Assembly (NCBI RefSeq): GCF_020097835.1
Contig: NZ_CP083666.1
Coordinates: 2,356,001 to 2,420,000 of the forward strand
Length of the DNA: 64,000 bases
DNA from: Haloprofundus halobius
Lineage (GTDB): Archaea; Halobacteriota; Halobacteria; Halobacteriales; Haloferacaceae
Direction: 5' to 3'
The notes under the pieces are model-generated. The model worked only from the letters and a program-made list of their open reading frames with translations. It had not been told where the DNA came from and did no database searches. The position numbers were made by a program, and so were the translations under genes. Position 1 is the stretch's first letter. Every line of letters begins with the position of its first letter. Positions 7,450 through 57,981 of this stretch are shown here, one piece after another.

Positions 7450-7522
7450 CGCCCGAGGCGGGATTTGAACCCGCGTCACGACCGTGACAGGGTCGTATGA
7501 TGGGCCACTACACCACCCGGGC
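7450..7522 (-). tRNA. tRNA-Asp (anticodon GTC), second copy
   Basis: Sequence identical to the copy at 6639-6711, with full cloverleaf, anticodon GTC and discriminator G. It lies about 250 bp before rpoH on the opposite strand. Exact identity over 73 bp suggests recent duplication or gene conversion. Confidence 0.93.
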
Positions 7523-26278: not shown

Positions 26279-26350
26279 GGGCTCGTAGATCAGTGGCAGA
26301 TCGCTTCCTTCGCAAGGAAGAGGCCCGGGGTTCAAATCCCCGCGAGTCCA
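26279..26350 (+). tRNA. tRNA-Ala (anticodon CGC), integration target
   Basis: 72 nt: acceptor GGGCTCG/CGAGTCC with the G3-U70 pair that marks alanine tRNAs, anticodon stem CTTCC/GGAAG with loop TTCGCAA (CGC), T arm CGGGG-TTCAAAT-CCCCG and discriminator A. Its 3' 14 bases form most of the attachment core of the element that follows; the gene is restored intact at the junction. Confidence 0.96.
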
Positions 26351-26351
26351 T
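26337..26351 (+). other. attL: 15-bp attachment core in tRNA-Ala 3' end
   Basis: TCCCCGCGAGTCCAT at 26337-26351 is repeated exactly and in the same direction at 57967-57981, 47 bp after the integrase gene. This is the expected footprint of tyrosine-integrase insertion into a tRNA 3' end. Confidence 0.9.
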
Positions 26352-27747: not shown

Positions 27748-28181
27748 ACGAACGCTTCCCTCACCTCGCGGCCGACATCGGTGAGGACCCGGCACGGTTC
27801 TTGGACCGCGACTTGGTTGAACGAGGTCCTCGAAAGACCGACACCACGAGTCTCCGTCTCGTCAAGGCCCGGATCCGTGGAATCGATTCCCTCGCGGTCT
27901 GCCGGGCGTGGCAAGCCGTCGAACGTCGTCTCGACCGTGGTCCTCGCGACGGGATTCTCGAACTCTTGGAAGAGCGAGATGCGTGGCTCGTTGAGAACGG
28001 CGACCGCGACGAACGGCTCGAACTCGGCATCCGTCGAGATGTCTCTCCAGAAGACGTCGTTTCGTGTGCGCGGTTTCTCGACGAGGATGGAGAGCTTCGC
28101 GACCGGACGAGTGCGAGTTCGAAGATTCACGAGATGCGCCAGTCTCCGGCTGTCGCGACTGATGGAGGTGACGACCAGTGA
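27744..28181 (+). CDS. Uncharacterised soluble protein upstream of replication protein
   Basis: 145 aa, ATG 27744 in a 4-bp overlap. Rich in Arg, Asp and Glu; helical segments (LLEERDAWLVENG). It overlaps the large gene at 28178 by 4 bp, which suggests a joint role. A short motif LVKARIRGIDSLAVCRAW looks conserved but I cannot name the family. Confidence 0.6.
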   Translation: MNERFPHLAADIGEDPARFLDRDLVERGPRKTDTTSLRLVKARIRGIDSLAVCRAWQAVERRLDRGPRDGILELLEERDAWLVENGDRDERLELGIRRDVSPEDVVSCARFLDEDGELRDRTSASSKIHEMRQSPAVATDGGDDQ

Positions 28182-30199
28182 GCGACGGTCGTGGCCATGA
28201 TCGAGACGATCCCGATGCTGTTGCAGATGCTATTCTACAAGCGTCGGCAGTCAAATCCGACCGAGATGATTCCGTCGAGGCCTCTGTCGAGAGTGAGAAC
28301 GACGAACTTCGAGCTGCCAGCGGTACTGACAGCCAAGATGCTGACGAGGCAGTCCGACGTCGTTCGGAAATCAAGAGTTGCGACGGAAGCCCCTCAACCG
28401 AGGATGCTCGCGAGGAACGGGCGAAGCGTGACCGTGAATCACTACGTGAACCGATTCCGACGATTCGGCCATCCGTTCACGAACTCGGTGCCAAGCTCCT
28501 GTTTACAAGTGAAGACCACTCGCTCCTCGAGGACGGTACGAGCGACCTCTCTGACGAACAGTTGCTCGAACGCCACGACGAGGACGCTCTCGCCCCGTTC
28601 TGGGCGATGGTTAAGCAATGGGAGCCGACACTCCCCGAAGACATCGATCCGTTCGGTGCTATCGGCCACGCCTGGCGCGTTCTTCCCTACGAGGCAGAGG
28701 GCGGTACGAAGTGCTGGGAGTCCGGTCTCGCCGCCGACGGAGAGTCGTACGAGCGCTACTACGAGTACCAGGTCGGCCTCCGTGCACAGGATTCGGTCGG
28801 AGAACGGAAGGCCGTCTTCCAGTTCAAGATTAGCCGACCGCTCGCGCGGCACTACAAGAGCGGTGATCTCATCCAGTCGATGCCGAACGACCTTCCGTTC
28901 GGTCTGCGCGTGCAGGTCGACTCGTCGAACATCCACCCGGACGACGTGCTGACGCTGCTGCGCCGTCTCTTCGACGAGATGGGCATCAACTCCGAGTACA
29001 TCGCTGACGACCGGCTTCACCCGTGGTCGTCCTGCTACAACCTCGCGCTGTACGCTCGCGTCGACCGCACCTACGGAGAACGCTATCTCGCTCAGCGGAA
29101 TGGGCTCATCGACCGTCTCGCGAAGTTCGGGATGGGTCGCGGCCGCGGCGAGTACAAGTGGGACAACGAGGAGGTCGTCGGCAAGCGAAACGCCGTCGTC
29201 CTCGACGCCGACACGTGGGAGCAGCTCCTCCCCGGCGAGCAGATCGCGATGCTGCTCAAGTACTACCATCCGAAGCAGGTTCGCTCGGAGAGTACTACCG
29301 CCGACAAGGACGCACTCCGCGACCCCAAGGTCGAGGTGCAGCGGTCCAGCGAGTACGCAGACGAGTCTCTCCCGTGGCACTCTGACGAGGAGACGGACGT
29401 TTCGGATGCTATCTCGAAGATGGATACCGCGCTCGTGAACGCGTTCTCGTGGTCTGGAATGCCTACGCGAGCCGGTGCCGCGTACACGGCTGACGAGTAC
29501 TTCCAGGCTGAGGAGGATACTCGCGACATCGAGATAATCGATAGTCCGCTCGACGACATCGAGGAGTCCGAGCAGGACATCGCCTTCGAGAACTTCTCAC
29601 GCGGCGATGCGACGTCGGCCGAACGGATGGGCGTTGTCGCTCTCGCAGATGGTGGCGACGGTGTCCACGTCGACGAACTCGCTGAACGTGCCGGTATCTC
29701 TCCTCGCTCGATTCGGCGAATGGGCGACCGCTACACAGAGGTCCTCGAGATTGTCAACGGGCTCGTTTCGTTCAACAACGACGTCGTCCGCGAGCGCTTC
29801 GAGGAACTCTTGTCGACGTTCACCGACGCGACAGACTGGATTTCGCGACGTGCTCGCGACCTCGTCGACCGTGCTGAGCGTGGCGATCTCTCCGAGAGCG
29901 CTGTCGGTCGGTGGGCGCGTCAGCATCTCGGCTCGGTCTCGTCCTCCGCGGATGGCCAGCTCGTCGATCTCTCTGGACGGCCGGTCACCGAGCCGAAACT
30001 CAAGCGGATGCTCCGGCGCGGCTTCCGTGCTGCACGTGCTGACGGCGTCGAGGCCGCCCGACGGTTCGTCTTCGGCACGTCGTTCCGGTGGACTGCTCCC
30101 AGCGGCGAGACGGTCGAGAGGGAGAACGTGGTGATGACGAACGGCACGGGTCTCGTTCGGATCCTCGGTCGAAACCAGGTGGATCTGCCCGCGCCGTAG
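28178..30199 (+). CDS. Large probable replication protein (DUF7845-like)
   Basis: 673 aa, GTG start overlapping the upstream stop. A disordered acidic N-terminus (about 100 residues) leads to a globular core with LHPWSSCYNLALYARVDRTY and LIDRLAKFGMGRGRGEYKW. A winged-helix segment follows near residues 490-540 (DELAERAGISPRSIRRMGD). It resembles proteins of haloarchaeal proviruses and plasmids that I recall as DUF7845. Size, DNA-binding domain and position in the left operon suggest initiation or priming of replication; no Walker or polymerase motif was seen, so this is inference. Confidence 0.6.
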   Translation: MSDGRGHDRDDPDAVADAILQASAVKSDRDDSVEASVESENDELRAASGTDSQDADEAVRRRSEIKSCDGSPSTEDAREERAKRDRESLREPIPTIRPSVHELGAKLLFTSEDHSLLEDGTSDLSDEQLLERHDEDALAPFWAMVKQWEPTLPEDIDPFGAIGHAWRVLPYEAEGGTKCWESGLAADGESYERYYEYQVGLRAQDSVGERKAVFQFKISRPLARHYKSGDLIQSMPNDLPFGLRVQVDSSNIHPDDVLTLLRRLFDEMGINSEYIADDRLHPWSSCYNLALYARVDRTYGERYLAQRNGLIDRLAKFGMGRGRGEYKWDNEEVVGKRNAVVLDADTWEQLLPGEQIAMLLKYYHPKQVRSESTTADKDALRDPKVEVQRSSEYADESLPWHSDEETDVSDAISKMDTALVNAFSWSGMPTRAGAAYTADEYFQAEEDTRDIEIIDSPLDDIEESEQDIAFENFSRGDATSAERMGVVALADGGDGVHVDELAERAGISPRSIRRMGDRYTEVLEIVNGLVSFNNDVVRERFEELLSTFTDATDWISRRARDLVDRAERGDLSESAVGRWARQHLGSVSSSADGQLVDLSGRPVTEPKLKRMLRRGFRAARADGVEAARRFVFGTSFRWTAPSGETVERENVVMTNGTGLVRILGRNQVDLPAP

Positions 30200-30500: not shown

Positions 30501-30863
30501 CTACTTCGACCCGAGCGGATGGCGATCCTCGTAGCTGGGGAACGAGTAGATCGCCCAGTTGCACGCGAGAATCAGCAAGAGCCCGGCCTCATGAATCCCC
30601 AGTCCCTCGAGCGACGAGGCCGACGGAACACCGATAGTCGCGACCGCGACCAGGACGAGTCCTAGTCCGACGAGCATCGGTGCGAGGTGTGCGAGGTAGA
30701 CCGCCCAGAGCGGCGTCTCGTCGCGCCACGTGATTCGAACCTCCGCGTCACCACGCTGCAGATCCGTCTCGACGTTCGACGCCCATGGGAGCGCCACTAG
30801 CGCGTGCGTGAGTTCGTGCAGCGGGACCGCAGGTGTCAACAGATGCCAGAGAACTCCCGTCAT
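30501..30863 (-). CDS. Membrane zinc-metalloprotease-like protein with HELTH motif
   Basis: 120 aa, ATG 30863 in a 4-bp overlap with the upstream gene. PLHELTHALVALPW near residues 14-27 is an HExxH motif at the start of a membrane segment, as in site-2-protease-like and DUF3267-type membrane zincins. Two further membrane helices follow (PMLVGLGLVLVAVATIGV, AGLLLILACNWAIY). A late Asp/Asn ligand is not obvious. Last gene of the structural operon; a processing role for coat or surface proteins is a guess. Confidence 0.65.
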   Translation of the reverse strand: MTGVLWHLLTPAVPLHELTHALVALPWASNVETDLQRGDAEVRITWRDETPLWAVYLAHLAPMLVGLGLVLVAVATIGVPSASSLEGLGIHEAGLLLILACNWAIYSFPSYEDRHPLGSK

Positions 30864-31129
30864 CCAGCGACCTCCTGAGCGCTCTCTCCACGCGTCTCTG
30901 AAGACGGCCAGTAGTACCGCAGAACGTCGGCCATCAACGCAGCGCCGAGACAGGCGAGAGACAGGTCTACCGCGAGCCAATGGGCCTTCATGGCGAACGT
31001 GCTGTCGAGTCTCCAGACAGGAACGAGAATGATGCACAGCAGCGTCAGCAGTCGCCACGACCACGTCACCGCCGCCCGTTCTTTCAGGGAAGCGTCTTCC
31101 GGCGGGTCGAATAGACGTCTGACCTGCAT
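30860..31129 (-). CDS. Small two-helix membrane protein
   Basis: 89 aa. Two membrane helices (WRLLTLLCIILVPVW, LAVDLSLACLGAALMADVL) follow a charged N-terminus. It overlaps the HELTH gene by 4 bp and the upstream gene by one base. No family recognised. Confidence 0.65.
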   Translation of the reverse strand: MQVRRLFDPPEDASLKERAAVTWSWRLLTLLCIILVPVWRLDSTFAMKAHWLAVDLSLACLGAALMADVLRYYWPSSETRGESAQEVAG

Positions 31130-31416
31130 CAGCTAATCACCGCCTTGTAGAAGGTCATGAAGATGGCGAGAGCCAGCGACATGAACATCATCGTCCACGC
31201 GATGCCGACGAGTTGTCCGGGGAGCACCGTGAACGCCATGAACGCGATGAGCGCCATCACCGTCGACGGCAGGATGATGTCGCCGGTTCGCGCGTAGATC
31301 GGCACGATTACGATTGCGGTGACGAACATCCCGAACGTGAGTTCTCCGAGCAGTCCCGTTGCTTCGGCGAAGATGCACGGGTGGATGTCTCCGCTGAACC
31401 AGCAGTCGAGGCTCAT
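31129..31416 (-). CDS. Small membrane protein with N-terminal Cys pair
   Basis: 95 aa from ATG 31416, chosen because it overlaps the upstream stop by 3 bases, like its neighbours. The N-terminus CWFSGDIHPCIF may form a disulfide outside the cell; about three membrane helices follow (LTFGMFVTAIVIVPIY, VMALIAFMAFTVL, IAWTMMFMSLALAIFM). Unknown family. Confidence 0.65.
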   Translation of the reverse strand: MSLDCWFSGDIHPCIFAEATGLLGELTFGMFVTAIVIVPIYARTGDIILPSTVMALIAFMAFTVLPGQLVGIAWTMMFMSLALAIFMTFYKAVIS

Positions 31417-31781
31417 GAGATACGCATCCCCCGGATGATTTGCCAGACGCCGATGTAACTCACGAACTGAACCGGAGATGCCAGCGGGATTGCGAACCAC
31501 GCCGGGAAGCCGACGTTTATCAACGCGACCGGCAACGCGAGAGACCATTTCAGGCCATCGACGACTGCCTGCGCGCCTTCGACTGTCACCCCCAGATAGG
31601 ACCCCTGGTCGGAAACGCGGTCGGCGCTATAACTATCGACGTCCTCGTCGAGTCCGCGCGCGTCTTCCTCGAGACCGGTCGAGTGACCGACGCCCAGATC
31701 CTCGTTGAAGCCGGACATGCTCATCATCATCCCCGCGACCGCGAGCGAAATCGCCAGCAGCATCGGCACGGTGACCTTCAT
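31413..31781 (-). CDS. Membrane protein with signal-type N-terminus
   Basis: 122 aa from ATG 31781 (4-bp overlap with the surface-protein gene). A hydrophobic N-terminus (VPMLLAISLAVAGMMM) is followed by about 35 acidic, probably exposed residues and a hydrophobic C-terminal half (WSLALPVALINVGFPAW, VQFVSYIGVWQII). Tight coupling to the LamG gene suggests a partner that holds it in the membrane. Confidence 0.65.
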   Translation of the reverse strand: MKVTVPMLLAISLAVAGMMMSMSGFNEDLGVGHSTGLEEDARGLDEDVDSYSADRVSDQGSYLGVTVEGAQAVVDGLKWSLALPVALINVGFPAWFAIPLASPVQFVSYIGVWQIIRGMRIS

Positions 31782-34231
31782 GCTCGGGCACCTCCGAACT
31801 CGGAGACCTTGCCAAGCAACGCTATCGCGCCTGCGATGCCGATTGCGCTCATCGGGATGTCGACCCATCCGAGCCACGTCATCCCGGTAGCGATGGCGAC
31901 GATGACAATCGCGCCGGTTCGGGCTTCGGATGACGGGAACAGCGCTGCGACCAGCACGATCAACACGAGAGCACCGAGGCTCAGCCAACGCGAGTCGATT
32001 GGGAGGTCGAGGTTCTCGACGCCTCCCAACTGATTCGTGTTGCCGATCTCCTCGCCGTTCCTCGTCGCGGACCACTTGACAACCCACTGCTTGTCCGCAT
32101 CGCTCTCCGAGAGCTGCTCCTCATGCAGGTAGCTCCCGAGTTCGTTCTCGCTGTCGCTGAACAAGACGTTCGACTCGTTCCCGCGCTCGTGCACGGTCAC
32201 CTCGAAGTTCGACGTCTCGTTCTGCTGGTCTTCGTAGTGGAGTTTGATTACGTCCTCCTCGGTGATGAACGCCTCCCAGCGGAACTGGTCTCCTTCCGGC
32301 GCTCGCCACTCGATGCGGCCGACTTCGAGCTGACGAGTGCCTTCGCTGGTCGCGAGGTACGAACCCAACTGGCGCGTATCACCATCCGAGTTCTGAACGC
32401 TCAAGCGGTAGCGCGCATCTCGTTGGAGGTAAACGGGGAAGAACTGCGACGCACCCACGTAGTCTCCAGCGATGACAACCCACTCGGCGGAGTCGTTGAT
32501 CGAGACGGCCTTCTCGATGTAGATCCTCGACGAGTCGGCCGGGAACTGTCCAGTCTGGTCGGCGACGCTGAACTCGTTCAGTACCGCGCTCTCGTTCTCG
32601 TCGAGGAGGAACACACGCTGCTGGTCGAACAGCGAATCAATGATGATCCGCCGCTGGTAGTAGCCATCCGCGTTCGCAACGACGACTAACTCCTCGTCTA
32701 CCGGAAGTCCGGCCATGTCGATTTTACCGTCCGTCGTCGTCCGCTCGACGACCGTGTCATCACCGTAGAAGCGGAGTGTAACCGTTGCATCCCCTGAGAT
32801 GAGTTCTTCTGGTGCGGTTTCGTTGCGGATCTCTAACTCCTCCGGCGTCCCGAAAGAGAAAGAACTACTCTGAAGGCTGTTGCCGTACGAATCCTCGACG
32901 GTGACATACCACTCATTCTCACCGGCAGTCAGTCCGTCCCACGTGGTGCTCGCGCTGCCGTTCGCGCTGAGCGTATCCGTGCCGATTACCGAGTCATCAG
33001 AAGCATCATGGAAATCAACCGTGACCTCGTCTCCCTGTGATGTCGCGAAGTCTGGATCAGAGACGCTAATCGAGAGTTCGCCGTCACCACTCGTGGTTTC
33101 GTTCGGCGATGCTGACGACTCGTCGATGATTGGATCGGTCGTTTGCGCCGATACCGAGTCGGAGTGAATTCTAGCGACGTGATCCGAGTCGGTCGTCTCC
33201 ATATCGACGGCCACGCGGACATCGTCTCCTTCGAACTCTGACCACGTCGACGTAAGCTCTTGTGGCGATGAGACGTTCGTCTCGTTGAGCGTTGTCCAGG
33301 TATCACCCCCGTCGGTTGATCCTTGCCACGTAACCTGCGCTGTCGCGTTATTGAGCGAGAGGTTAACCGATCCCGAGACCGACCGATCAACATCGTGAAC
33401 GTTGCTGTATGAACTATCTTCAGACGTCGTCCGGAGCTTCCCGGATGGCTCTGCGTATAAGTCTTCGACATCTCCATCTGACAAAGCGGACTCATAAACG
33501 CGGACTTCGTCGATTGTTCCGTTTATCTCTTGACTCGGTCCGCCATTGTATGATCTCGATGCCAACCGGAAGACGTCAGAGTTGGTCTCAGACTCCGAAT
33601 ATTGGAACGAATCAACCTCCGTCCCGTTGATGAACAGCGTTGATGTTGAGCCGTCGGCAACGAGCGTGATGTGCTGCCAGACACCGGTTTTCGCATCTTC
33701 GTCGGTGGTTGCTGTGCTATCCCCATTTGCATGACGCCAGTTGCCGTTATTTATATCAACGTAAAACCGGGCGTCGCCAGCGTCATGGACACCGAGACCG
33801 CCACTCTGGTCATCCTCAACCTTAACCCAGAACGAGAGAGTTCGCTCAGTCGATTGTGGAACGTACCCCGTGGAAAGGTCTTGAGATCCATCGACGCTGA
33901 GCGCGGATCCAGAGATACCAGACACCCAATCTGAATCGTCAATATCGACGTCGTTTGTCTGGACACGGTCCTGGGCACCATCTCCGTTGCCTTCGTCGAG
34001 AGACCATCGGCCAGCGATGCTCTGATCAGAGACGCCTGGTGCAACGTATGCGCTTTCGCCCGTACGCTCAACTTCAGCGTTGGTGAGACTACCTTCGTTG
34101 AACTCCGATGCCGTCGAGTGCTCGGAGACGATCGCGACGTTCGCGGCCGCCACCGGCTGAGCGCTCAACGAGAGCAGCGCCATCGCGACCGCGGCGACAA
34201 CGAGCCACCGACCACGGAGATCGACGCGCAT
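31778..34231 (-). CDS. LamG-domain surface (adhesin/spike) protein
   Basis: 817 aa from ATG 34231. Signal peptide (residues 1-29, WLVVAAVAMALLSLSAQPVAA), a LamG/concanavalin-like domain at about 70-250 (WSLDEGNGDG, TLSFWVKVEDD, GVWQHITLVADG, IDEVRVYESALSDGDVEDLY), then several beta-sandwich regions with many N-x-S/T sites and, at the end, three hydrophobic segments (from about 740: WLSLGALVLIVLVAALF, TGAIVIVAIATGMTWL, AIGIAGAIALL). This fits a glycosylated receptor-binding protein anchored in an envelope. The first third is less GC-rich than its surroundings. Confidence 0.82.
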   Translation of the reverse strand: MRVDLRGRWLVVAAVAMALLSLSAQPVAAANVAIVSEHSTASEFNEGSLTNAEVERTGESAYVAPGVSDQSIAGRWSLDEGNGDGAQDRVQTNDVDIDDSDWVSGISGSALSVDGSQDLSTGYVPQSTERTLSFWVKVEDDQSGGLGVHDAGDARFYVDINNGNWRHANGDSTATTDEDAKTGVWQHITLVADGSTSTLFINGTEVDSFQYSESETNSDVFRLASRSYNGGPSQEINGTIDEVRVYESALSDGDVEDLYAEPSGKLRTTSEDSSYSNVHDVDRSVSGSVNLSLNNATAQVTWQGSTDGGDTWTTLNETNVSSPQELTSTWSEFEGDDVRVAVDMETTDSDHVARIHSDSVSAQTTDPIIDESSASPNETTSGDGELSISVSDPDFATSQGDEVTVDFHDASDDSVIGTDTLSANGSASTTWDGLTAGENEWYVTVEDSYGNSLQSSSFSFGTPEELEIRNETAPEELISGDATVTLRFYGDDTVVERTTTDGKIDMAGLPVDEELVVVANADGYYQRRIIIDSLFDQQRVFLLDENESAVLNEFSVADQTGQFPADSSRIYIEKAVSINDSAEWVVIAGDYVGASQFFPVYLQRDARYRLSVQNSDGDTRQLGSYLATSEGTRQLEVGRIEWRAPEGDQFRWEAFITEEDVIKLHYEDQQNETSNFEVTVHERGNESNVLFSDSENELGSYLHEEQLSESDADKQWVVKWSATRNGEEIGNTNQLGGVENLDLPIDSRWLSLGALVLIVLVAALFPSSEARTGAIVIVAIATGMTWLGWVDIPMSAIGIAGAIALLGKVSEFGGARA

Positions 34232-34503
34232 CAGTACCGACCTCCCATGACCTGGCGCTCGCGCTCCGTCTGGATCGAGCCAATCGCTTGGTAGATGAGC
34301 AGGTCCAGGAAGAAGATCGGGACGATGAGCGTGTACGCCACTAACTCGAACCGTTCCAGCGGCTCCAGTACCCACGTGTCCTGCACGTACGAGAGACTGT
34401 ACGCCACCTCGAACACCTCAGCGCCGGCCGTGTTGAGGAACACGATGAGGCCGATGACCTGCACGACGCCGATGCCGACGAACAGCGTTCGGAGCCAGCT
34501 CAT
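34231..34503 (-). CDS. Small two-helix membrane protein
   Basis: 90 aa, ATG 34503. Helices LFVGIGVVQVIGLIVFL and LVAYTLIVPIFFLDLLIY with a polar, probably external loop between. It overlaps the surface-protein start by one base and the upstream gene by 4. Unknown family; candidate envelope component. Confidence 0.65.
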   Translation of the reverse strand: MSWLRTLFVGIGVVQVIGLIVFLNTAGAEVFEVAYSLSYVQDTWVLEPLERFELVAYTLIVPIFFLDLLIYQAIGSIQTERERQVMGGRY

Positions 34504-34754
34504 ACGCCTCTCCTCGACGCGGTGACGCCACGGCTCAACGCCTCGATGAACAGGCCGATCATGACCACGCCGATGAACCACGTCATCGCGTCCGTGCCGT
34601 ATCCGCAGTTCGTGGCCCCGTCGACCACCGTCGGTGCCGCGTCGCCGCAGCCTATCGACATCATCGGGTCGACGACCGTTTCCATCACGTCGTGCAGCAG
34701 CGCCGCCAGCACGAACGTCAGCGTGATTTTCAGGTAGGTGCCGAACGTCGCCAT
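34500..34754 (-). CDS. Small membrane protein with external Cys-containing loop
   Basis: 84 aa. An N-terminal helix (TYLKITLTFVLAALLHDV), a loop with two Cys (GCGDAAP...NCGYG) and a C-terminal helix (WFIGVVMIGLFIEAL). The Cys pair could form a disulfide. It begins directly after the stop codon of the 973-aa gene. Unknown family. Confidence 0.65.
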   Translation of the reverse strand: MATFGTYLKITLTFVLAALLHDVMETVVDPMMSIGCGDAAPTVVDGATNCGYGTDAMTWFIGVVMIGLFIEALSRGVTASRRGV

Positions 34755-37676
34755 CTACCTCCGCCCTCCGAACTCACGCTCGATGAGGTCTTCCGCCGAT
34801 GCGATTCCCGTCTCCCACTCCTTCTCCCACGCGGAGAAGTCCGGCATCGACGGCTCCTGCGGGTCCTCGAACTGACCGGGCGTCTCCCGCTCCCACTCGT
34901 ACTCCGTGTTGGTCCTCGTCTCGATTTCCCACTCGCTCTCGTACTCGGTTTCTCGCTCCAGCTCCGGTGGACGGTACTCCGTCTCGTAGTCCGTCGCCAT
35001 CCGCGAGTCCGTCGTCCAGTCCGTCCCGTACGCCGTGTCGAGGTCAGTATCGAGTTCGGTATCTACCCTCGTGTCGGTCATCATCTCCGTCTCCGTGCCG
35101 AGGCGGCCCATGTCGGCCTCGAACTCCGCGAGACCGTCGTCGCTGTAGTCCGCCACCGAGTACTCCATCGACGCTGCCGCTTGGCCGATCTCCGGCATCT
35201 CGACCTCCATTCCCGGACGCCGGTAGTCCGGTCGCAGCGACGGTTGAACGGCCTCCGTCTGTGCCTCCAACTCGTAGCGCTGCGCCGACGTCCAGTCGAC
35301 CTCCGGTTCGTCGTACCGAAACGCCTCACGTGCGCGACGACCTCGACTGCGACCGCGTCGAGTGCTGCGCTCGAACGCCTGTTGACGGAGCCAGCGCTGC
35401 TCCGCGAGCGTGTCCGCGTCCACGGTGAACTCGTCGGCACGACCACCGAACGCGGACTGCGTGTCCACGCTTCGGGCCTGCTCGACGTCACCCAGTTGCT
35501 CCTGGCGGACTGCCTGCTCCTGTGTGGCGAAGCGGTCGAGTTCGTACTGCGTCTGGTCGAGTTGCTGCTCTGCTTCCCACTCGGAGCCGCGAGTGGACTG
35601 CCACTCCGAGTCGATCTGGACCGACGGCTGGTCCGGGTCAGATGTCTCGGTGCGTCGAGTCCGTCCCGCGCCCAGCTGCGCACGCTCGTCGCCCATGAAC
35701 TGGCGCACCCGGCGCGATTCACGTCGCGCCCAGTTGTCCATCACGTCGTACCGCGTTCGACGGATGGCGCGAGAGAGCCTCGACGTCGCCGCTTGCCCGC
35801 CCCGAATGGCAATTTCCTCCGGGTCGATGCGGTTGTTCGGCAGTCTCGATAGTGCGCGACGACCCCTCCTCGTACTGCCGACAGTTCGAGTGGCGACATC
35901 GCCGATGATCTCCTCGCCAGGTTGAATCGCGTAGCGGCTCACGCGTCCCGCGCGTCCGCTCACTCGTGCAGCACCGCCCATCACACCGACGCTGCCGACG
36001 AGCGACCCTGCACCCATGCCGAGAGAGCGAGACGGGTTTTCGGCGAACTCCTCTCTCGCAGACCCGATAGCCACCTCTCCTGCTTGGGCACTATCTTCGA
36101 GGAACTCTCGTCCATCGCCTCTCGCCGTTTGATCAATTCCGTACCCGATGTACTCCCCGGCCTCCTTCAGACCGACAGCGACGTTGGGCACGTTCACGAT
36201 TTCGCCGGCACCTCGGAGACCGCCCTCGACGAACTCCTCTTGCTGGTCGACGCCCTCGTCGAGGATGCTTTCGACGTCGCCCATGCCGCGGTCTCCCGCT
36301 GCGTCGGCCGCCGCCTCTTGTCTCTGCAGACCCGCGAACGGTCCGACCGTCTCGAATAACGGGTCGGTGGTGTCCGCGGCCCGGTTCAGGTCTTGCTCGG
36401 TGACGCCGATTGTGTCGGCGATTCCGCCGACTGCGTCGTATCGAGAGACGCTCGAGGCTGCCACTCCGACGGGATTGCCTCGCGAGTCGACGATGTCCTC
36501 CGCGGTGTTGCCGACGAAGTCCGAGTAGGCGTCCCCGGCATCGCCGAGCACGTTCTCGACGCGCCGACCGCCGACGGCCGGTACCGCGTCGGGGATGCGG
36601 ACGGACCAGTCTCCGAACTCCTCTTGGGGCGCTTGCCGGTCCTGCGCGAACCGACCGGAGACTCCCGGCAGGTTCGCTCTCCCCGTCGGGTTGCCGATGT
36701 CCAACGTCTGCGGGTCGTCTTGGTCTCGGTCCTGCGCGAACTGTCCGCTCACGCCCGGAATGTTGTTGAGCGAGTCGAGGCGCGCCTCGTTTCGCTCGTT
36801 CATTCGGTCTTGGGCGTCGTCGAGGAACACGTCGGCCGCCTCCTGGTCGAACGCATACTGCTGGCGAACCGTCTCGCCGTCGCCCGTCTCGACAGTAACG
36901 ACGAACCCGTCGTCGGTCCGCTCCTCGATGGAGTATCCTTGCGCGTCCTCGAACTGTTCGTTGACCGTCTGCTCGACAGTATCGAGTTGCGCCTCGGTCT
37001 CGAAAACGTCGCGACCGGAGTCGGTGAGTCGAACCGTCACGCGTCCGCTGTCCTTGACCACGAACTGGTAGTCCTCGCGGTCCAGATACGGGTACTCTGC
37101 CTCGATGGCACGTTCCCGGCGGTCTATCTGCGCCTCGACGAGGTTGTTGTCCGCGCTGACGTCGCCCTGGACGACGACGCGTTCGGGGTCGTCGTCCTGG
37201 TCGGTCTCCTCCGGCGGCCGGTCACTCGGGCTATCCCGATCTCGGCCGGGAGTCGTTCCCCCGGTCTGATCCGGAGTCTGTCCGGACGGGCTCTCCGGTC
37301 GCGGGTCGTTTCGGTCGCGGATGGTGTCACGATTCGGATCGCCTCCGCCGGAACCACCGCCACCGTTGTCGTTGCTGCCGTCGTCACGGTTCCGGTCGTA
37401 CTCCTCGGGCGGTTCCGGTCTCGGTTCGTTCCGGTCGCGCGTCGAATCGCCACCGGAGCCACCGCCACCACCGCCTCCGCCGGAGCCACCGCCGCCACCG
37501 CTTCCGCCGGAGCCACCGCCATCGCTGCTGCCGTCGTCTTGGTTCCGGTCGTACTCCTCGGGCGGTTCCGGTCTCGGTTCGTCCCGGTCACGCGTCGAAT
37601 CGCCACCGGAGCCACCGCCACCACCGCTTCCGCCGGAGCCACCGCCGCCACCACCCGATTCCCAGTTGGCAGGCAT
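34755..37676 (-). CDS. 973-aa Gly/Ser-linker protein with repeats
   Basis: Start ATG 37676 chosen by overlap with the upstream stop. Residues 6-150 are two near-identical Gly/Ser linkers, each followed by RDRxEPRPEPPEEYDRN. A folded part follows (QIDRRERAIEAEYPYLDRED). Near residues 340-395 the phrase PGVSGQFAQDRD recurs as PGVSGRFAQDRQ. A weakly hydrophobic Gly/Ala patch is near 610-640. The last 200 residues are Tyr/Glu/Thr-rich with short TELDTDLDT-like repeats. No family recognised. Large, repetitive and within the structural operon, so likely a structural or scaffold protein. Confidence 0.72.
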   Translation of the reverse strand: MPANWESGGGGGGSGGSGGGGGSGGDSTRDRDEPRPEPPEEYDRNQDDGSSDGGGSGGSGGGGGSGGGGGGGGSGGDSTRDRNEPRPEPPEEYDRNRDDGSNDNGGGGSGGGDPNRDTIRDRNDPRPESPSGQTPDQTGGTTPGRDRDSPSDRPPEETDQDDDPERVVVQGDVSADNNLVEAQIDRRERAIEAEYPYLDREDYQFVVKDSGRVTVRLTDSGRDVFETEAQLDTVEQTVNEQFEDAQGYSIEERTDDGFVVTVETGDGETVRQQYAFDQEAADVFLDDAQDRMNERNEARLDSLNNIPGVSGQFAQDRDQDDPQTLDIGNPTGRANLPGVSGRFAQDRQAPQEEFGDWSVRIPDAVPAVGGRRVENVLGDAGDAYSDFVGNTAEDIVDSRGNPVGVAASSVSRYDAVGGIADTIGVTEQDLNRAADTTDPLFETVGPFAGLQRQEAAADAAGDRGMGDVESILDEGVDQQEEFVEGGLRGAGEIVNVPNVAVGLKEAGEYIGYGIDQTARGDGREFLEDSAQAGEVAIGSAREEFAENPSRSLGMGAGSLVGSVGVMGGAARVSGRAGRVSRYAIQPGEEIIGDVATRTVGSTRRGRRALSRLPNNRIDPEEIAIRGGQAATSRLSRAIRRTRYDVMDNWARRESRRVRQFMGDERAQLGAGRTRRTETSDPDQPSVQIDSEWQSTRGSEWEAEQQLDQTQYELDRFATQEQAVRQEQLGDVEQARSVDTQSAFGGRADEFTVDADTLAEQRWLRQQAFERSTRRGRSRGRRAREAFRYDEPEVDWTSAQRYELEAQTEAVQPSLRPDYRRPGMEVEMPEIGQAAASMEYSVADYSDDGLAEFEADMGRLGTETEMMTDTRVDTELDTDLDTAYGTDWTTDSRMATDYETEYRPPELERETEYESEWEIETRTNTEYEWERETPGQFEDPQEPSMPDFSAWEKEWETGIASAEDLIEREFGGRR

Positions 37677-37879
37677 CAGCACCGACCTCCCTGTCGGAAC
37701 CGGTAATCGTGTTCGCGGTGGTAGCCCCCGTTCGCACGGCTGACCATTGCTTTCGTCGCGAACTTCTGCGCGAGGCGCTTCGCTTCGTCCTCGGCGATTC
37801 GCTTGCGGTGGTCGCGTGCGACCTCGACGCCGTTGTGGACGACGAGCCATTCCCTACCGTCTCGCTCGACGCGGATCAC
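37676..37879 (-). CDS. Small basic DUF2188-like protein
   Basis: 67 aa with a GTG start at 37879 that overlaps the upstream stop by 3 bases. The pattern VERDGREWLVVHNGVEVARD then EDEAKRLAQKFA resembles the small beta-beta-beta-alpha DUF2188 family; the tail is His/Arg-rich. The longer reading of this frame overlaps the next gene and looks unnatural. Confidence 0.5.
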   Translation of the reverse strand: MIRVERDGREWLVVHNGVEVARDHRKRIAEDEAKRLAQKFATKAMVSRANGGYHREHDYRFRQGGRC

Positions 37880-38754
37880 AGCAGTCCACCTCCCACGAGC
37901 ACGTTTGCGATGTCGATCATGCCGATCGGCACCGTCGGGATGGTTCCGCTGCCGCCTCCGGCGATGCTCGTCGCGAGCGCCGGACCGAACAGCCCGAGCG
38001 CGACGCCGCCGAGCGCTGCGAGCAACACCCACAGCGTGTCCGAGCGCGAGAAGTCCAGTTCGGCGAGTTTCGCGCGCTTGGCTTGGTTGCCCATGTCCTC
38101 TTGGGTCACCTTCGAGCCGAACAGCCGCCAGCCGTCGCGGAACGACAGCGCTCGGCCCTCGTATCCCGACGTTTCGGCATCGATTGCGACATCTCTGCCG
38201 CCGTCCGCGCGGGCGTGGGGTTCGTAGTTCCCGAGCCGGCGCTGCGTTCCCATGTACGCTTCGAGCGGCTCGGTGATCTCTCGGCCCTCACGAAGCGCCC
38301 AGACGACGGGGAACTTGCCGTTCACGCGCTTCGGTGCGAATCCGATACCTTTCGCGCTGAACTTCTCGCCGTTCGTCGTCTCGTACTCGGCGTCCTGCGA
38401 GTTCCACGTCGCGCCGCGCGTGGCGACGACGCCGTCGCCGTAGATTACGTTGCAGATGACGTCCGCCGAGGTCGTCTTCATCACGATTTTGTGACCGGCG
38501 TTGATGAGCGCCGCTCCCAGCGCACCTGTCCTCGGGATAGGCTTCAGCGACCAGTAGACGAGTGCCATCCAGAAGACGCACCAGCCCTTGACGGCCGCGG
38601 CGATCGTGCCCCCGATTGTACGGCCCGCCTTGCCCGCGGATGAACCGCCGTCTTTCGCAGTTGCTTTGACTTGCTTGACGAACCCATCGGGTTCAATCGG
38701 GGAGTCGGTCTGTTCGGTGTCGTGTCCGTCGTTCGGTGATTCGTTGTCAGTCAT
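37876..38754 (-). CDS. Membrane protein of the structural cassette
   Basis: 292 aa. Hydrophilic N-terminus (about 45 residues), a hydrophobic segment (VKGWCVFWMALVYWSL, about 55-70), a soluble middle (FPVVWALREGREITEPLEAYM) and two C-terminal hydrophobic stretches (TLWVLLAALGGVALGLFGPAL, IPTVPIGMIDIANVLVGGG). No family recognised. The middle may face the particle interior. Confidence 0.65.
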   Translation of the reverse strand: MTDNESPNDGHDTEQTDSPIEPDGFVKQVKATAKDGGSSAGKAGRTIGGTIAAAVKGWCVFWMALVYWSLKPIPRTGALGAALINAGHKIVMKTTSADVICNVIYGDGVVATRGATWNSQDAEYETTNGEKFSAKGIGFAPKRVNGKFPVVWALREGREITEPLEAYMGTQRRLGNYEPHARADGGRDVAIDAETSGYEGRALSFRDGWRLFGSKVTQEDMGNQAKRAKLAELDFSRSDTLWVLLAALGGVALGLFGPALATSIAGGGSGTIPTVPIGMIDIANVLVGGGLL

Positions 38755-38757: not shown

Positions 38758-39348
38758 CTATTTGAAGGGGTTGAGTGCGCTCAGCAGTCCTCCGCCGCCT
38801 CTGCTGCTCGGTTCGTCGCCGTGTCGCTCGGTCGAGACGTGCATCTCCGTGATACCCTCGAAGAACGTGCCATCGCCCATGCTCTCGCGGTCGGTTTTGA
38901 CCTCCGAGAGCGCGTGCCAGATTGCCTCCTTCTCGGCGGCGCTCCAGTCGTCTCGGACACCGCCGAAGTTGTCGCCGTCGACCTCCTGGGCGACCTCGCG
39001 GAAGATACCGGTGCAGAGGTCGGGGTACTCGCCGCCTTTGATGAGCCGGTCGGCGAGGTTCTCGTTTAGCAGCCGATTCGAGTGGTCGCTGTAGTAATCG
39101 TCGCCGTGCGCGGCGAGCATACCCGTCGTCGACAGGTAGGGCTTGAGCAGGTCGACGATGTCGCGGTACTCCTCGCTCTCGAGGTCCTCGTCGGTGAGTT
39201 TGTCGAGGATCTGGTCCGGCTCCATCTCCTTGATCGGGTCGATGGCCGGCCCTCGACGAGTGCCCGCCTCGAGGCCGACGCGCTCGACCTGTTGGTCCTT
39301 GCGGGCAGAGATCTCTCGCTCCTGCCGTTCGGCGTCTCGTCGGCTCAT
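38758..39348 (-). CDS. Soluble helical protein of the structural cassette
   Basis: 196 aa with no membrane segment. The N-terminal 35 residues are charged and coiled (RRDAERQEREISARKDQQ); helices such as EPDQILDKLTDEDLESEEYRDIVDLL follow. Some arrangement is shared with virion internal proteins but no family is recognised. Only 3 bp separate it from the next gene; 4-bp overlap upstream. Confidence 0.65.
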   Translation of the reverse strand: MSRRDAERQEREISARKDQQVERVGLEAGTRRGPAIDPIKEMEPDQILDKLTDEDLESEEYRDIVDLLKPYLSTTGMLAAHGDDYYSDHSNRLLNENLADRLIKGGEYPDLCTGIFREVAQEVDGDNFGGVRDDWSAAEKEAIWHALSEVKTDRESMGDGTFFEGITEMHVSTERHGDEPSSRGGGGLLSALNPFK

Positions 39349-39644
39349 CCGCTCACCCCCGTCCGTCCGTCAGTCGGGTAGCGACCCGTGAGCGACCCGA
39401 TGAACGCAGCCACGCTGATCAGCCAGAACGCGGCTGCCACCCATTGGACTTCGGGCGCACCGTAGACCTCGGAGACACCGTTGGAGACCACGGTAATCGA
39501 GTCACTACGTAGCGCGACGACGCCCCACGTGAGCAGCGAGATGCCCGCGAAGATTTCGGTGTCGTTGTGCCAGCCGTTGAACAGCGTTGCGAACAGGCTG
39601 GCGGAGCCAAGCGCGAAGAGCGCCAGATACTGGCTCTCCAGCAT
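39345..39644 (-). CDS. Small membrane protein
   Basis: 99 aa with about four hydrophobic segments (YLALFALGSASLFATLF, IFAGISLLTWGVVAL, WVAAAFWLISVAAFIGSL). Start ATG overlaps the upstream stop (TGATG). Candidate envelope protein; family unknown. Confidence 0.65.
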   Translation of the reverse strand: MLESQYLALFALGSASLFATLFNGWHNDTEIFAGISLLTWGVVALRSDSITVVSNGVSEVYGAPEVQWVAAAFWLISVAAFIGSLTGRYPTDGRTGVSG

Positions 39645-40078
39645 CAGATTAACTCCATGAGATTGAGTACCGCGACGGCCATGAACATCAGCAGGAGGTA
39701 CGGAAACGCCGTGGCACCTGCTGAGAGGATGCTATTCACACCTTTGGTCGAGTCCGACCTCGCGGTGTAGTCGTACGTGATGTCGACGGTCGCGCCGTCG
39801 GGGGCCGACGATCCATTGACTCGACGGAACTCGCCGGTTGAGTCGTTCCATCGATAGTCGGATCCCTCATCGAGGGTTGTTTCGTTGTACACCACGACGA
39901 TCTCGTCGCTGAAGGAGGCGGCTCGGTCCGCCTCGTCGACGGAGCGCCAACTGTCGGTCAGCGTATGCGTCTCGTTCGTCGCGGTGTAGGGCTTTGCTGC
40001 ATTGTCGTAGGAGAGGCCGAGCACCGGAGCTGCAACTATCAGCAGCAGGGTGACGGCCGCGAATTTCCATACACTCAT
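39644..40078 (-). CDS. Exported protein with C-terminal membrane anchor
   Basis: 144 aa: N-terminal signal-like helix (FAAVTLLLIVAAPVLGL), an external domain of about 85 residues with three N-x-S/T sites, and a C-terminal helix (YLLLMFMAVAVLNLMEL). It follows the two-helix coat candidate by 56 bp. Type and size fit a minor surface protein. Confidence 0.68.
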   Translation of the reverse strand: MSVWKFAAVTLLLIVAAPVLGLSYDNAAKPYTATNETHTLTDSWRSVDEADRAASFSDEIVVVYNETTLDEGSDYRWNDSTGEFRRVNGSSAPDGATVDITYDYTARSDSTKGVNSILSAGATAFPYLLLMFMAVAVLNLMELI

Positions 40079-40101: not shown

Positions 40102-40122
40102 GCTTACCCGCAAAAAGTGGGT
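40102..40122 (-). terminator. Possible weak hairpin with T5 loop after coat-candidate gene
   Basis: On the minus strand ACCCAC-TTTTT-GCGGGT follows the stop of the 166-aa gene by about 13 bases. It may partly end transcription so that the first gene is made in excess. One mismatch in the stem, so weak. Confidence 0.35.
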
Positions 40123-40134: not shown

Positions 40135-40635
40135 TTACCGCCCGCCGCCGCCGTTGCCCATGCCACCGAAGTAGCTGAGCGCGACGCCGGCACCGACTGC
40201 GATCAGGCCGACTCCGATGAGCGTGAAGGCCGTCGTCCCGTAGTCTGCGAACGTATCGGTCATGTTCGTCCACTCGTTCTCGGTGTCCGGGTCAGACACG
40301 ATGTCGGTCCCGTACAGCGCACCGAGAACGATCAGCGCCACGACTGCGACGATGATACCGCGGGCGACGACCATGACCGAGCCGCCGATCTTGGCGGTCG
40401 TCGTCTCGGCTTCGTGGACCTCGTCGACGGAGACTTCGCCAACGGTCTTGTTGGCGAATGCCTTTCCCGCGAGCGTCGCGTTCCAGAGCTTGAAGTCCGC
40501 GTCTTCACGAACAGCGTCGGCAGCGTCGATTGCACGATCGACGATGCCAGGGCTGTCAGGTTGTTCCGTTCCCAGTCCAATTCGAGCCGCGGGTGCGAGC
40601 CCACGGGTTTCCGGTTGAATGGCAGCTGCGGCCAT
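40135..40635 (-). CDS. 166-aa two-helix membrane protein, candidate major coat protein
   Basis: About 90 polar N-terminal residues lead to helix 1 (IIVAVVALIVLGALYG), a loop of about 25 residues rich in Asp, Asn and Thr, then helix 2 (TLIGVGLIAVGAGVALSYF) and a short Gly-rich tail. A removable N-terminal part plus two helices joined by a polar loop is the plan of spindle-shaped virus coat precursors (SSV VP1, His1 VP21). It is the first gene of the structural operon with its own leaderless promoter, and a gap plus a possible hairpin follow. Identity as coat protein is inferred, not shown. Confidence 0.65.
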   Translation of the reverse strand: MAAAAIQPETRGLAPAARIGLGTEQPDSPGIVDRAIDAADAVREDADFKLWNATLAGKAFANKTVGEVSVDEVHEAETTTAKIGGSVMVVARGIIVAVVALIVLGALYGTDIVSDPDTENEWTNMTDTFADYGTTAFTLIGVGLIAVGAGVALSYFGGMGNGGGGR

Positions 40636-40653: not shown

Positions 40654-40740
40654 CTATAGTATAATGATTTTGACGAGTTGATGTTGGCACACGTGGCCCG
40701 GCATGTGTCCCCTCATGTAGCCTACCAACTGCTTATTAAC
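40654..40740. promoter_or_regulatory. Divergent promoters of structural and ATPase operons
   Basis: In the 127-bp gap between 40635 and 40763, the minus-strand TATA box is ATTATACTATAG (40654-40665), 19-30 bases before the ATG. The plus-strand box is TTATTAAC (40733-40740), 23-30 bases before ATG 40763. Both distances predict leaderless mRNA. One regulator could control both operons here. Confidence 0.6.
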
Positions 40741-40762: not shown

Positions 40763-41005
40763 ATGTCACCGGAATTAGCTGGTTCAGCACGGCATTATGT
40801 CGAGGAGCTCAAGCGCGCGGAGCGCCCCGACGATGTCGCGCTGAACGTCGAGACACGAACCGTTTCGTCGAACAACGGATGTCCCTACGTCAATCCGACG
40901 GACTTCGGGTTGCGGATGCTCGGACTCGGTATCGGCGACGACGTCCACGTCGCGACCTTCCACGGCGCAATCGTCATATTGCCGGAGGGGGTGTCCGATG
41001 CCTAA
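40763..41005 (+). CDS. AbrB/SpoVT-like swapped-hairpin regulator
   Basis: 80 aa. The C-terminal half (RTVSSNNGCPYVNPTDF, MLGLGIGDDVHVATFHGAIVILP) has the beta pattern of AbrB/MazE-type DNA-binding domains. First gene of the plus-strand operon next to the divergent promoter, so it may control both directions. Overlaps the next gene by 8 bp. Confidence 0.65.
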   Translation: MSPELAGSARHYVEELKRAERPDDVALNVETRTVSSNNGCPYVNPTDFGLRMLGLGIGDDVHVATFHGAIVILPEGVSDA

Positions 41006-41564
41006 CGAGGACGGGATGCCGCGGAAGACGACCCGCGAGAAGCTCATCGAGGCAGCGCAGATCCGCGTCCACGAGGAGCGAGTCATCTGTCTCCGTGCGA
41101 ATCTTCGATTCAACACGGTGCCGCGCTCGAAGCGTGAGGACTTCCAGACCGCGCTTCTCGACTACTACCACGCACTCCGACCGCTCCGGAAGGAGGGCAT
41201 CGTCAACAACTTCTGGGAAAACGAGGTTCTGAGCAAGAAACTCACTCAGCCCACGGAGGTCGAACAGCAGAACGTCAAGGCGCAGATCGACGGCGGTAAA
41301 CCCACTATCTCGACCGAGACGGTCTCTGTCGACAAGCCGATTGAAGGCCTCGACTGGCTCGAAGAGTTAGAGGACGAAACCGAGACGAACATCGAGGAGC
41401 AGCGGACGATGCGCGGAACTCTCCCACCAAAACGCACCGAGCGTCCGCTCGTCCTCCCCGCTGACGTGCTCATCGATATTGCCGGTGTCCTCGACGACGC
41501 CGCTGCAAGACTCGGGTTCAGTCCCGAGGTCGCGCTGCAGGAGGGGACGACTGATCCGGTATGA
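40998..41564 (+). CDS. Soluble helical protein upstream of ATPase
   Basis: 188 aa. Arg/Glu-rich helical N-terminal half (TREKLIEAAQIRVHEERVICLRAN), a middle linker, and a tail VLIDIAGVLDDAAARLG. It overlaps the ATPase gene by 4 bp and is probably its partner. No family recognised. Confidence 0.62.
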   Translation: MPNEDGMPRKTTREKLIEAAQIRVHEERVICLRANLRFNTVPRSKREDFQTALLDYYHALRPLRKEGIVNNFWENEVLSKKLTQPTEVEQQNVKAQIDGGKPTISTETVSVDKPIEGLDWLEELEDETETNIEEQRTMRGTLPPKRTERPLVLPADVLIDIAGVLDDAAARLGFSPEVALQEGTTDPV

Positions 41565-42505
41565 GCAGTATCGAAGCAATTCAGGAGAGTCCCCACATCA
41601 GCAATGGGGTCAGCCTGAAAGAGTACTACGGTGCGATGCCCGAACCGGTTCGGAACAACATCATGCTCCGCCGGAAGATTTGGCCGCGGATGAACATCCA
41701 CAACGAAAACTGGATGTGCTGCTGCGTCGGTGAAACTGGCAGCGGGAAGTCCTACGCCGCGGTGCGTCTCGGAGAAGCCCTCGACCCAAACTTCTCCATT
41801 GACAACATCGCGTTCAGCGTCGAGGAGTTCCTCGAACTCGTCAACGACGACTCGTTCGGTCCCGGCTCGGTCTTTGTCCTCGAAGAGGCTGGCGTCGCAG
41901 CGGGGAACCGTAACTGGTGGGACATCGCAAACGAGGTTCTGGACTCGCTCACTCAGACGTGGCGAAACCAGAACAAGGGAGCGGTGTTCACCGCCCCTGA
42001 CTTCGACTTGATCGACTCTCACGTTCGGCGTCGGTTCCACCACTTGGTCGACATGGTCGACAAGGATGAGGACGAGATGGTCTCAAAAGCCCGGTTCAAA
42101 TACATCCAGACGAACCATGAGACCGGGAAGACTTACCGGAAGTTCTACCGCATGGTTGACGACCGAGGCATCCGCCGGATGTATCGGTATGTCCAATTTG
42201 GACTACCCAGCCCAGAACTCATCGAGTCCTACGAGGATGTCAAGAGTGGGTATACCGACGACCTCAACGCAAGTCTATTGGAGAAAGTACGAGCGGAATC
42301 GGCGGAAGAGGATGACGACCTCTCTCCGCACGAAATTGTCGACCAGATCATCTCCGAGGACCGTGTAGAGGATTATATCTCGGAATCGCCGGGTGGCGAG
42401 TACCTGGATCGGGACCTGTTGAAAGTGGACTTTGGTGTATCGGAAGCAGAGTCGAAACAGGTCAAGAAACTCCTCGTTCGGGAGGCAGATCTCGATGTCC
42501 AGTAA
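41561..42505 (+). CDS. P-loop ATPase of virus/vesicle morphogenesis type
   Basis: 314 aa. Walker A GETGSGKS near residue 57, Walker B SVFVLEEAG near 105, then SLTQTWRNQNKGAVFTAPDFDLID, the sensor-like region of Zot/FtsK-HerA-related ATPases of filamentous, spindle-shaped and pleomorphic viruses. A C-terminal winged-helix-like part follows (GGEYLDRDLLKVDFGV). By family such enzymes drive genome packaging or particle assembly at the membrane. Soluble itself; preceded by two coupled genes. Confidence 0.8.
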   Translation: MSSIEAIQESPHISNGVSLKEYYGAMPEPVRNNIMLRRKIWPRMNIHNENWMCCCVGETGSGKSYAAVRLGEALDPNFSIDNIAFSVEEFLELVNDDSFGPGSVFVLEEAGVAAGNRNWWDIANEVLDSLTQTWRNQNKGAVFTAPDFDLIDSHVRRRFHHLVDMVDKDEDEMVSKARFKYIQTNHETGKTYRKFYRMVDDRGIRRMYRYVQFGLPSPELIESYEDVKSGYTDDLNASLLEKVRAESAEEDDDLSPHEIVDQIISEDRVEDYISESPGGEYLDRDLLKVDFGVSEAESKQVKKLLVREADLDVQ

Positions 42506-42701: not shown

Positions 42702-42808
42702 AGTCACAGACCATTCCACAGAACCAGACGCTCGACCGCGACGAACAGACGACGACTCAGATAGCAGAGACTGCGCACCACTCATCCGATACTGGTGGTC
42801 AGAGATGA
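42698..42808 (+). CDS. 36-aa polar leader-like protein
   Basis: ATG 42698; the stop overlaps the glycosyltransferase ATG by 4 bp (ATGA). Polar, Gln/Thr-rich, no motif. It may mainly serve translational coupling of the next gene. Confidence 0.4.
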   Translation: MKSQTIPQNQTLDRDEQTTTQIAETAHHSSDTGGQR

Positions 42809-56810: not shown

Positions 56811-56893
56811 GCGACGTCGAACCCGAACCATCGGGGGTAACCCTCGGGTCGACGGTCCGCAACCGCGACGGTCACGAGGTCGACTGTGAGTGA
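56807..56893 (+). CDS. 28-aa coupled micro-ORF before the integrase
   Basis: GTG 56807 overlaps the PadR stop by 4 bp, and the TGA (56891-56893) overlaps the integrase GTG (56886). Polar peptide with VTLGSTVRNRDGHEVDCE. It may be a real small partner or only relay translation. Confidence 0.45.
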   Translation: MSDVEPEPSGVTLGSTVRNRDGHEVDCE

Positions 56894-57920: not shown

Positions 57921-57966
57921 ATGATAGCAAGCGTAACGGTACACGGTAGTCAGCAAAGTGTTGAGT

Positions 57967-57981
57967 TCCCCGCGAGTCCAT
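57967..57981 (+). other. attR: 15-bp attachment core
   Basis: Exact direct copy of 26337-26351. Beyond it the chromosome resumes. The last bases of the element before it show no further tRNA sequence. Confidence 0.88.

What the first reader, a model, noticed from the sequence alone, without database searches (positions are those of the whole stretch)
40135..40635. Two-helix protein with a removable-looking N-terminus as coat candidate
The topology is polar N-half, helix, 25-residue polar loop, helix, Gly tail, and it resembles spindle-virus coat precursors. It is first in the operon, has a TATA box at leaderless distance and is followed by a gap and a possible hairpin, as expected of an over-expressed gene.
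Basis: inference. Interest (0 to 1): 0.7.

Follow-up and report, generated by a model that had tools for sequence, protein, structure and literature searches.

The report
Coat protein of lemon-shaped provirus
This salt-loving archaeon carries an integrated lemon-shaped virus, and this gene is very probably the main coat protein of that virus group, which the 2025 study of the only isolated member did not identify.

Summary
The 166-aa ORF (40135-40635, minus strand) is real. It lies in a ~31.6 kb provirus (tRNA-Ala att 26330-26351 / 57960-57981, integrase, DUF7845 Rep). It is the counterpart of CDS0020 of LSV-48N (PP151251.1), an isolated lemon-shaped Haloferax virus. The LSV-48N paper (PMC12714723) reports no similarity of any ORF to known capsid proteins.

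In 19 of 392 haloarchaeal genomes, plus LSV-48N, a hairpin protein of this family sits beside an ATPase family related to His1 gp16 and SSV1 B251. Most loci also carry a lectin/TM spike resembling SSV1 VP4.

The hairpin core is 67-89% identical among close relatives. The N-terminal half is mostly 20-29% identical and ranges from 5 to 122 aa across the family. The loop carries an N-glycosylation sequon more often than chance. A ~60-nt gap follows the gene, and five relatives have tandem coat copies. The predicted hairpin terminator is not supported.

Direct profile homology to fuselloviral VP1/VP3 stays below significance, and AlphaFold models are too poor to use. The LSV-48N core is one 85-aa tryptic peptide, so standard MS would miss it.

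Best reading: major coat protein of a broad spindle-virus group, possibly N-terminally processed. New member of a known kind.

The parts
40135..40635 (-). Coat protein candidate, 166 aa: N-half residues 1-77, two hydrophobic helices (87-105, 135-153), Gly tail
   Evidence: ORF; homologue of LSV-48N CDS0020; family in 21 loci
40405..40635 (-). Variable N-terminal extension (residues 1-77)
   Evidence: 20-29% identity to close relatives in most pairs, core 67-89%; length 5-122 aa in the family
40234..40320 (-). Polar loop between the helices, with sequon NMT at residues 124-126 (40258-40266)
   Evidence: Loop sequon in 18 of 26 family members, 8.2 expected
40655..40664 (-). TATA-like element at leaderless distance
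   Evidence: Sequence; -29..-20 from the ATG
40112..40116 (-). T run in the 56-nt gap after the coat gene, possible partial terminator
   Evidence: Gap conserved in relatives; T runs modestly enriched
39644..40078 (-). 144-aa protein with N- and C-terminal hydrophobic segments, Ig-like PHROG hit
   Evidence: phrog_807 E 1e-3; LSV-48N CDS0019
39345..39644 (-). 99-aa membrane protein
   Evidence: Conserved in the module
38758..39348 (-). 196-aa protein of the structural module
   Evidence: In 20 loci
37876..38754 (-). 292-aa protein with C-terminal hydrophobic segment
   Evidence: In 17 loci
34755..37850 (-). Large Gly/acidic-rich protein; start uncertain (37676 or 37850)
   Evidence: Homologues in G192, G284, G204 and LSV-48N
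34500..34754 (-). 84-aa two-helix membrane protein
   Evidence: Close relatives only
34231..34503 (-). 90-aa two-helix membrane protein
31778..34231 (-). VP4-like spike: ConA-like lectin domain, Ig-like region, C-terminal TM helices
   Evidence: Laminin_G_3 E 2e-20; C-terminus vs SSV1 VP4 24%, reversed 1.1%
31413..31781 (-). 122-aa membrane protein
   Evidence: In 18 loci
31129..31416 (-). 95-aa three-helix membrane protein
   Evidence: In 18 loci
30501..30863 (-). Small membrane HExxH protein (HELTH)
   Evidence: Frame read; LSV-48N homologue weakly DUF3267 zincin, E 0.006
40763..41005 (+). 80-aa protein, divergent operon, first gene
   Evidence: Homologues in LSV-48N and others
40998..41564 (+). 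188-aa protein preceding the ATPase
   Evidence: In 20 loci
41561..42505 (+). P-loop ATPase of the His1 gp16 / SSV1 B251 type
   Evidence: Profile 99.5% and 90.6%; Cdc6-like control 38%
28178..30199 (+). DUF7845 (Rep-Arvir) replication protein
   Evidence: PF25227 E 4e-75; PMC13107129
53784..54809 (+). Cdc6-like AAA protein shared with LSV-48N
   Evidence: Cdc6_lid E 1e-14
56886..57920 (+). Tyrosine integrase
   Evidence: PF00589 E 7e-8
26330..26351 (+). att site at the tRNA-Ala 3' end
   Evidence: Direct repeat with 57960-57981
57960..57981 (+). att site after the integrase gene
   Evidence: 19/22 identical, last 15 exact

Best explanation
The gene encodes the major coat protein of an integrated lemon-shaped (spindle) virus of the LSV-48N group. 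Inferred mechanism: the two hydrophobic helices form an alpha-hairpin that inserts in the membrane, with the termini on the genome side and the sequon-bearing loop outward. Many copies pack side by side to make the virion shell, and the VP4-like lectin protein of the same operon forms the receptor-binding tip. The gene is transcribed first, with partial termination in the conserved gap raising its dose. The fast-evolving N-half is probably not part of the shell lattice and may be cut off at about residues 75-80 during assembly. Shown here: homology and shared slot with an isolated lemon-shaped virus, conserved module, topology, conservation contrast, sequon and gap statistics. Inferred: presence in particles, hairpin packing, cleavage, termination.
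For: Same slot and homologous to LSV-48N CDS0020, whose virus makes lemon-shaped particles (PMC12714723). Found with the ATPase in 19 haloarchaeal genomes plus LSV-48N. ATPase 99.5% to His1 gp16 and 90.6% to SSV1 B251, the top two of 532 profile comparisons; VP4-like C-terminus to SSV1 VP4 third. Two-helix topology with an ~80-aa extension as in SSV1 VP1, and the same length variability in fuselloviral VP1. Core far more conserved than the N-half. Loop sequons 18/26 against 8.2 expected. Conserved post-gene gap and tandem copies. Homologous hairpins near an ATPase or VP4-like gene in other orders.
Against: No significant direct profile match to known coat proteins (5-9% separately; 57% at most with the widest profiles, reversed 15%). 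AlphaFold models low confidence (pLDDT 55 and 53) and no Foldseek match. The LSV-48N paper ranks a large protein, not this one, as most abundant in the supernatant by iBAQ; trypsin blindness of the core could explain that only if the N-half is gone. No cleavage site or protease identified.
Confidence: 0.82

Rival explanations
1. It is a minor virion membrane protein or assembly factor, and another protein of the operon (one of the 84/90/95/122-aa membrane proteins or the Ig-like 144-aa protein) is the major coat.
For: The operon has several small membrane proteins. The published iBAQ leader is not this protein.
Against: The 84-aa protein is confined to close relatives and the 90-aa family is less widely conserved, while the hairpin gene is in every locus with the module. 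None of the other membrane families matches fuselloviral VP1/VP3 above 2.4%, and none is followed by a conserved gap. The 95- and 122-aa proteins are three-helix or have an N-terminal helix plus others.
Confidence: 0.12
2. It is a two-helix membrane protein of non-structural function, such as a host-takeover, superinfection-exclusion or egress protein, or a transporter-like subunit.
For: Small two-helix viral membrane proteins are common. A weak Pfam DUF1206 hit (E 6e-4, below the gathering score) is to a membrane domain of unknown function.
Against: It heads the structural operon in all relatives, is more identical to LSV-48N than the other structural proteins, is tandemly duplicated in five genomes and is collinear across orders. 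No significant hit to any transporter family.
Confidence: 0.05
3. The element is a pleolipovirus and the protein a pleomorphic-virus membrane protein.
For: The DUF7845 Rep is shared with the pleomorphic virus SNJ2 (PMC13107129).
Against: Rep modules are exchanged between virus classes (PMC13107129). PHROG and Pfam scans of the structural region gave no pleolipovirus-annotated hit. The closest isolated relative is the lemon-shaped virus; the pleomorphic virus in the same culture is a different 16-kb genome.
Confidence: 0.01

Closest known systems
LSV-48N CDS0020 / WWZ16978.1 (PP151251.1), annotated 'hypothetical protein'
   Same: Same length (166 aa), same gene slot, 67% identical core, same divergent ATPase operon
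   Different: N-half only about 20% identical; sits on a 24.9-kb replicating genome rather than a 31.6-kb provirus with extra cargo
SSV1/SSV19 VP1 and VP3 (Fuselloviridae; PDB 7XDI)
   Same: Two hydrophobic helices with a sequon-bearing polar loop; VP1 has a polar extension of about 70 aa, absent in SSV Ragged Hills; tandem paralogues
   Different: No significant sequence similarity; Gly-rich instead of Lys-ending tail
His1 VP21 (gp21, Halspiviridae)
   Same: Two-helix protein heading the operon opposite the gp16 ATPase operon; loop sequon
   Different: 73 aa with no N-extension; His1 is linear with a PolB gene; no significant profile match
Methanosarcina spindle-shaped virus 1 (Eurekaviridae)
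   Same: Two coat gene copies, as in five relatives found here (PMC12451623)
   Different: Sequence not in the collections; not compared

Membership tests
LSV-48N virus group | Collinear structural operon opposite an 80/188-aa/ATPase operon | tested here: met
   Gene-by-gene homology in order
LSV-48N virus group | Integrase, DUF7845 Rep and Cdc6-like protein | tested here: met
Alpha-hairpin coat proteins of spindle-shaped archaeal viruses | Two hydrophobic helices joined by a polar loop, highly hydrophobic core | tested here: met
Alpha-hairpin coat proteins of spindle-shaped archaeal viruses | Profile similarity to VP1/VP3/VP21 | tested here: inconclusive
   2-9% separately, up to 57% with merged profiles, reversed 15%
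Alpha-hairpin coat proteins of spindle-shaped archaeal viruses | Curved alpha-hairpin fold as in 7XDI | tested here: inconclusive
   Models are helical hairpins but pLDDT 53-55; no Foldseek match
Alpha-hairpin coat proteins of spindle-shaped archaeal viruses | Major protein of lemon-shaped particles | not testable with these tools
   Needs particle proteomics or cryo-EM; the supplementary MS table could not be opened
Alpha-hairpin coat proteins of spindle-shaped archaeal viruses | N-terminal processing as in SSV1 VP1 | not testable with these tools
   Only indirect: variable, poorly conserved N-half
Spindle-shaped virus genome | B251/gp16-type ATPase | tested here: met
   99.5% and 90.6%
Spindle-shaped virus genome | VP4-type end-filament or lectin spike | tested here: inconclusive
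   Lectin domain E 2e-20; C-terminus 24% to VP4, reversed 1.1%
Halspiviridae (His1) | Type-B DNA polymerase gene | tested here: not met
   The predicted genes of the element above 400 aa are assigned otherwise: DUF7845 Rep, VP4-like, large structural protein, transposase
Fuselloviridae | Recognisable VP1/VP3 sequence and SSV core gene set | tested here: not met
   Of 21 other SSV1 proteins compared only B251 matches with high probability, VP4 weakly; VP1/VP3 insignificant

The most novel reading that the evidence does not exclude
The N-half is a built-in assembly domain removed on maturation, possibly by the small membrane HExxH protein encoded at the end of the same operon. The LSV-48N group would then be one branch of a virus lineage spanning haloarchaea and other orders of the phylum, with a coat protein that standard trypsin proteomics overlooks.
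Probability: 0.15. Interest if true: 0.7.

Novelty: new member of a known kind. Interest (0 to 1): 0.5.

Why it matters
LSV-48N is a tractable chronic virus of Haloferax that suppresses host defence, but its coat protein was not identified. A named candidate, a reason why trypsin MS would miss it, and about 20 collinear relatives across haloarchaea make the question directly testable. The His1 gp16 / SSV B251-type ATPase and VP4-type spike tie this group to the spindle-shaped viruses, although its coat sequence has drifted beyond reliable detection.

Tried and rejected
No relatives by peptide-pattern scans of IMG/VR with the coat or ATPase, and none of the ATPase in plasmids. The genome-contig scans gave only Haloferax mucosum and Halogeometricum limi. 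PDB sequence search with the coat profile hit only unrelated membrane or designed proteins such as beta-adrenergic receptors, rejected as composition matches. An RNA hairpin after the gene was rejected. A link between the HExxH protein and N-extension length was looked for: loci with very short extensions (G035, G148, G244) also carry it, so no correlation. PAV1, NSV1, MetSV1 and NYM1 records were not found in the collection.

Full report
Observation. The ORF at 40635-40135 (minus) is 166 aa. Its hydrophobic segments at 87-105 and 135-153 are separated by a 29-residue loop and followed by SYFGGMGNGGGGR. TTATACTATA lies 29-20 nt upstream of the ATG. It is the first gene of a tightly packed minus-strand operon, separated from the next ATG (40078) by 56 nt. 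The hairpin claimed after it does not fold better than shuffles; a TTTTT run is present.

The element. A tRNA-Ala 3' end (26330-26351) is repeated at 57960-57981 (19/22, last 15 exact), about 40 bp after a tyrosine integrase gene at 56886-57920. This gives a provirus of about 31.6 kb with a DUF7845 Rep (28178-30199, E 4e-75) and a Cdc6-like protein (53784-54809). Four other genomes of the same genus lack the ATPase and the coat profile.

Closest relative. tblastn against annotated phages found one record for the coat and one strong record for the ATPase, the same one: Haloferax phage LSV-48N, PP151251.1. Its CDS0020 to CDS0010 and CDS0008 correspond in order to 40635-30501, and CDS0021-0023 to 40763-42505. 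The paper (PMC12714723) shows lemon-shaped particles and states that no ORF resembles a known capsid protein. It reports the most abundant LSV protein after trypsin digestion as one with an SSV19-tail-like C-terminus and a central beta-sandwich; by domain order this is probably the VP4-like CDS0012 (my inference). I found no coat assignment in the parts of that paper that I read or searched.

The family. A 16-row profile found 21 of 392 haloarchaeal genomes at E<=1e-5. In 19 of them, and in LSV-48N, the hairpin gene lies with the ATPase and other members of the module. One further genome (G275) has only the coat and the 122-aa protein, and one (G155) shows no module and is probably a false hit. 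Five genomes have two tandem coat genes separated by 2-6 nt, with the wider gap only after the second copy. At phylum level, weaker hits in other families (E 4e-13 to 4e-6) include loci with an ATPase and/or VP4-like protein of the same families nearby (G505, G697, G528/G588, G483). G505 shows a similar order: ATPase, 77-aa hairpin, 98-aa 3-TM protein, further small proteins, 775-aa and 678-aa proteins. The profile of these proteins matches the haloarchaeal one at 98.5% (reversed control 35%); since they were found with the haloarchaeal profile, this figure is not independent.

Links to known spindle viruses. Fourteen module-family profiles were compared with 38 proteins of SSV1 and His1 (532 comparisons). 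The four best were ATPase-His1 gp16 (99.5%), ATPase-SSV1 B251 (90.6%), VP4-like-SSV1 VP4 C-terminus (24%) and VP4-like-SSV1 B78 (14%). Controls: ATPase against a Cdc6-like protein of the window 38%; VP4 reversed 1.1%. The VP4-like protein carries a ConA-like lectin domain (Laminin_G_3, E 2e-20); membrane-anchored lectin proteins are core genes of Thermococcales spindle viruses (PMC12934983). The coat family itself gives only 2-9% against VP1, VP3 or VP21 separately, and 29% against a joint profile (reversed 4%). With the relatives from other orders added this rises to 57% (reversed 15%). That is suggestive, not proof. Pairwise hhalign E-values are not database E-values, so only probabilities and controls are used.

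Coat-like properties. Identity to close relatives is 67-89% in the core but 20-29% in the N-half (59% for one pair). N-extension length runs from 5 to 122 aa by my gene calls, whose starts are approximate. Fuselloviral VP1 shows similar length polymorphism (SSV1 144 aa as read here, Ragged Hills 89 aa). The loop holds N-X-S/T in 18 of 26 members against 8.2 +/- 2.1 in shuffles (0 of 2000 reach it), whereas the N-extensions show no excess. SSV1 VP1 and VP3 are glycosylated at such sites (PMC9608457). The gap after the coat gene has a median of 63 nt in 21 loci against 0 nt for 150 other operon junctions. These counts treat related loci as independent.

Why it was probably missed. In silico trypsin digestion of LSV-48N CDS0020 gives five usable peptides, all before residue 82, and then one 85-residue hydrophobic peptide. 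If the N-half is removed, the mature protein yields no usable tryptic peptide. If the N-half is retained, the protein should have been seen, so the existing data can discriminate. I could not open the supplementary table, so I do not know whether CDS0020 is among the 13 LSV proteins detected.

Mechanism. The best-supported account is a membrane-embedded hairpin with an exposed, glycosylatable loop, polymerising into the lemon-shaped shell, with a lectin spike at the tip and a B251/gp16-type ATPase acting in replication or packaging. Location in particles, packing and cleavage are inferred.

Membership. It meets the topology and genomic-context criteria of spindle-virus coat proteins; sequence and fold tests are inconclusive. 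The element is a member of the LSV-48N group. It is not a halspivirus or fusellovirus by the features tested.

Noticed in passing
window 30501-30863 (-): Small membrane protein with a HELTH (HExxH) motif at the end of the structural operon, conserved in many relatives; possible zinc protease.
   Followed up: partly
L137, L134, L132, L129 (G505, G697, G528, G483): Proviral-looking loci in other families of the phylum carry the hairpin protein with an ATPase and/or VP4-like protein of the same families.
   Followed up: partly
window 34231-34503 (-): 90-aa two-helix protein whose iterated profile also picks up coat proteins of several relatives; direct profile comparison does not confirm it. Possible minor coat paralogue or composition effect.
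   Followed up: partly
window 37340-37645: Two tandem 153-nt repeats (88% identical) in the Gly-rich, acidic part of the large structural protein gene.
   Followed up: no
window 46349-48196 (+): DDE transposase (PF01609) inside the provirus.
   Followed up: no
window 42805-43974 (+): Glycosyltransferase-like ORF with a C-terminal membrane segment and no homologue in the relatives compared; possible cargo.
   Followed up: no
window 6639-7522: Two tRNA-Asp (GTC) genes about 0.8 kb apart on the same strand.
   Followed up: no
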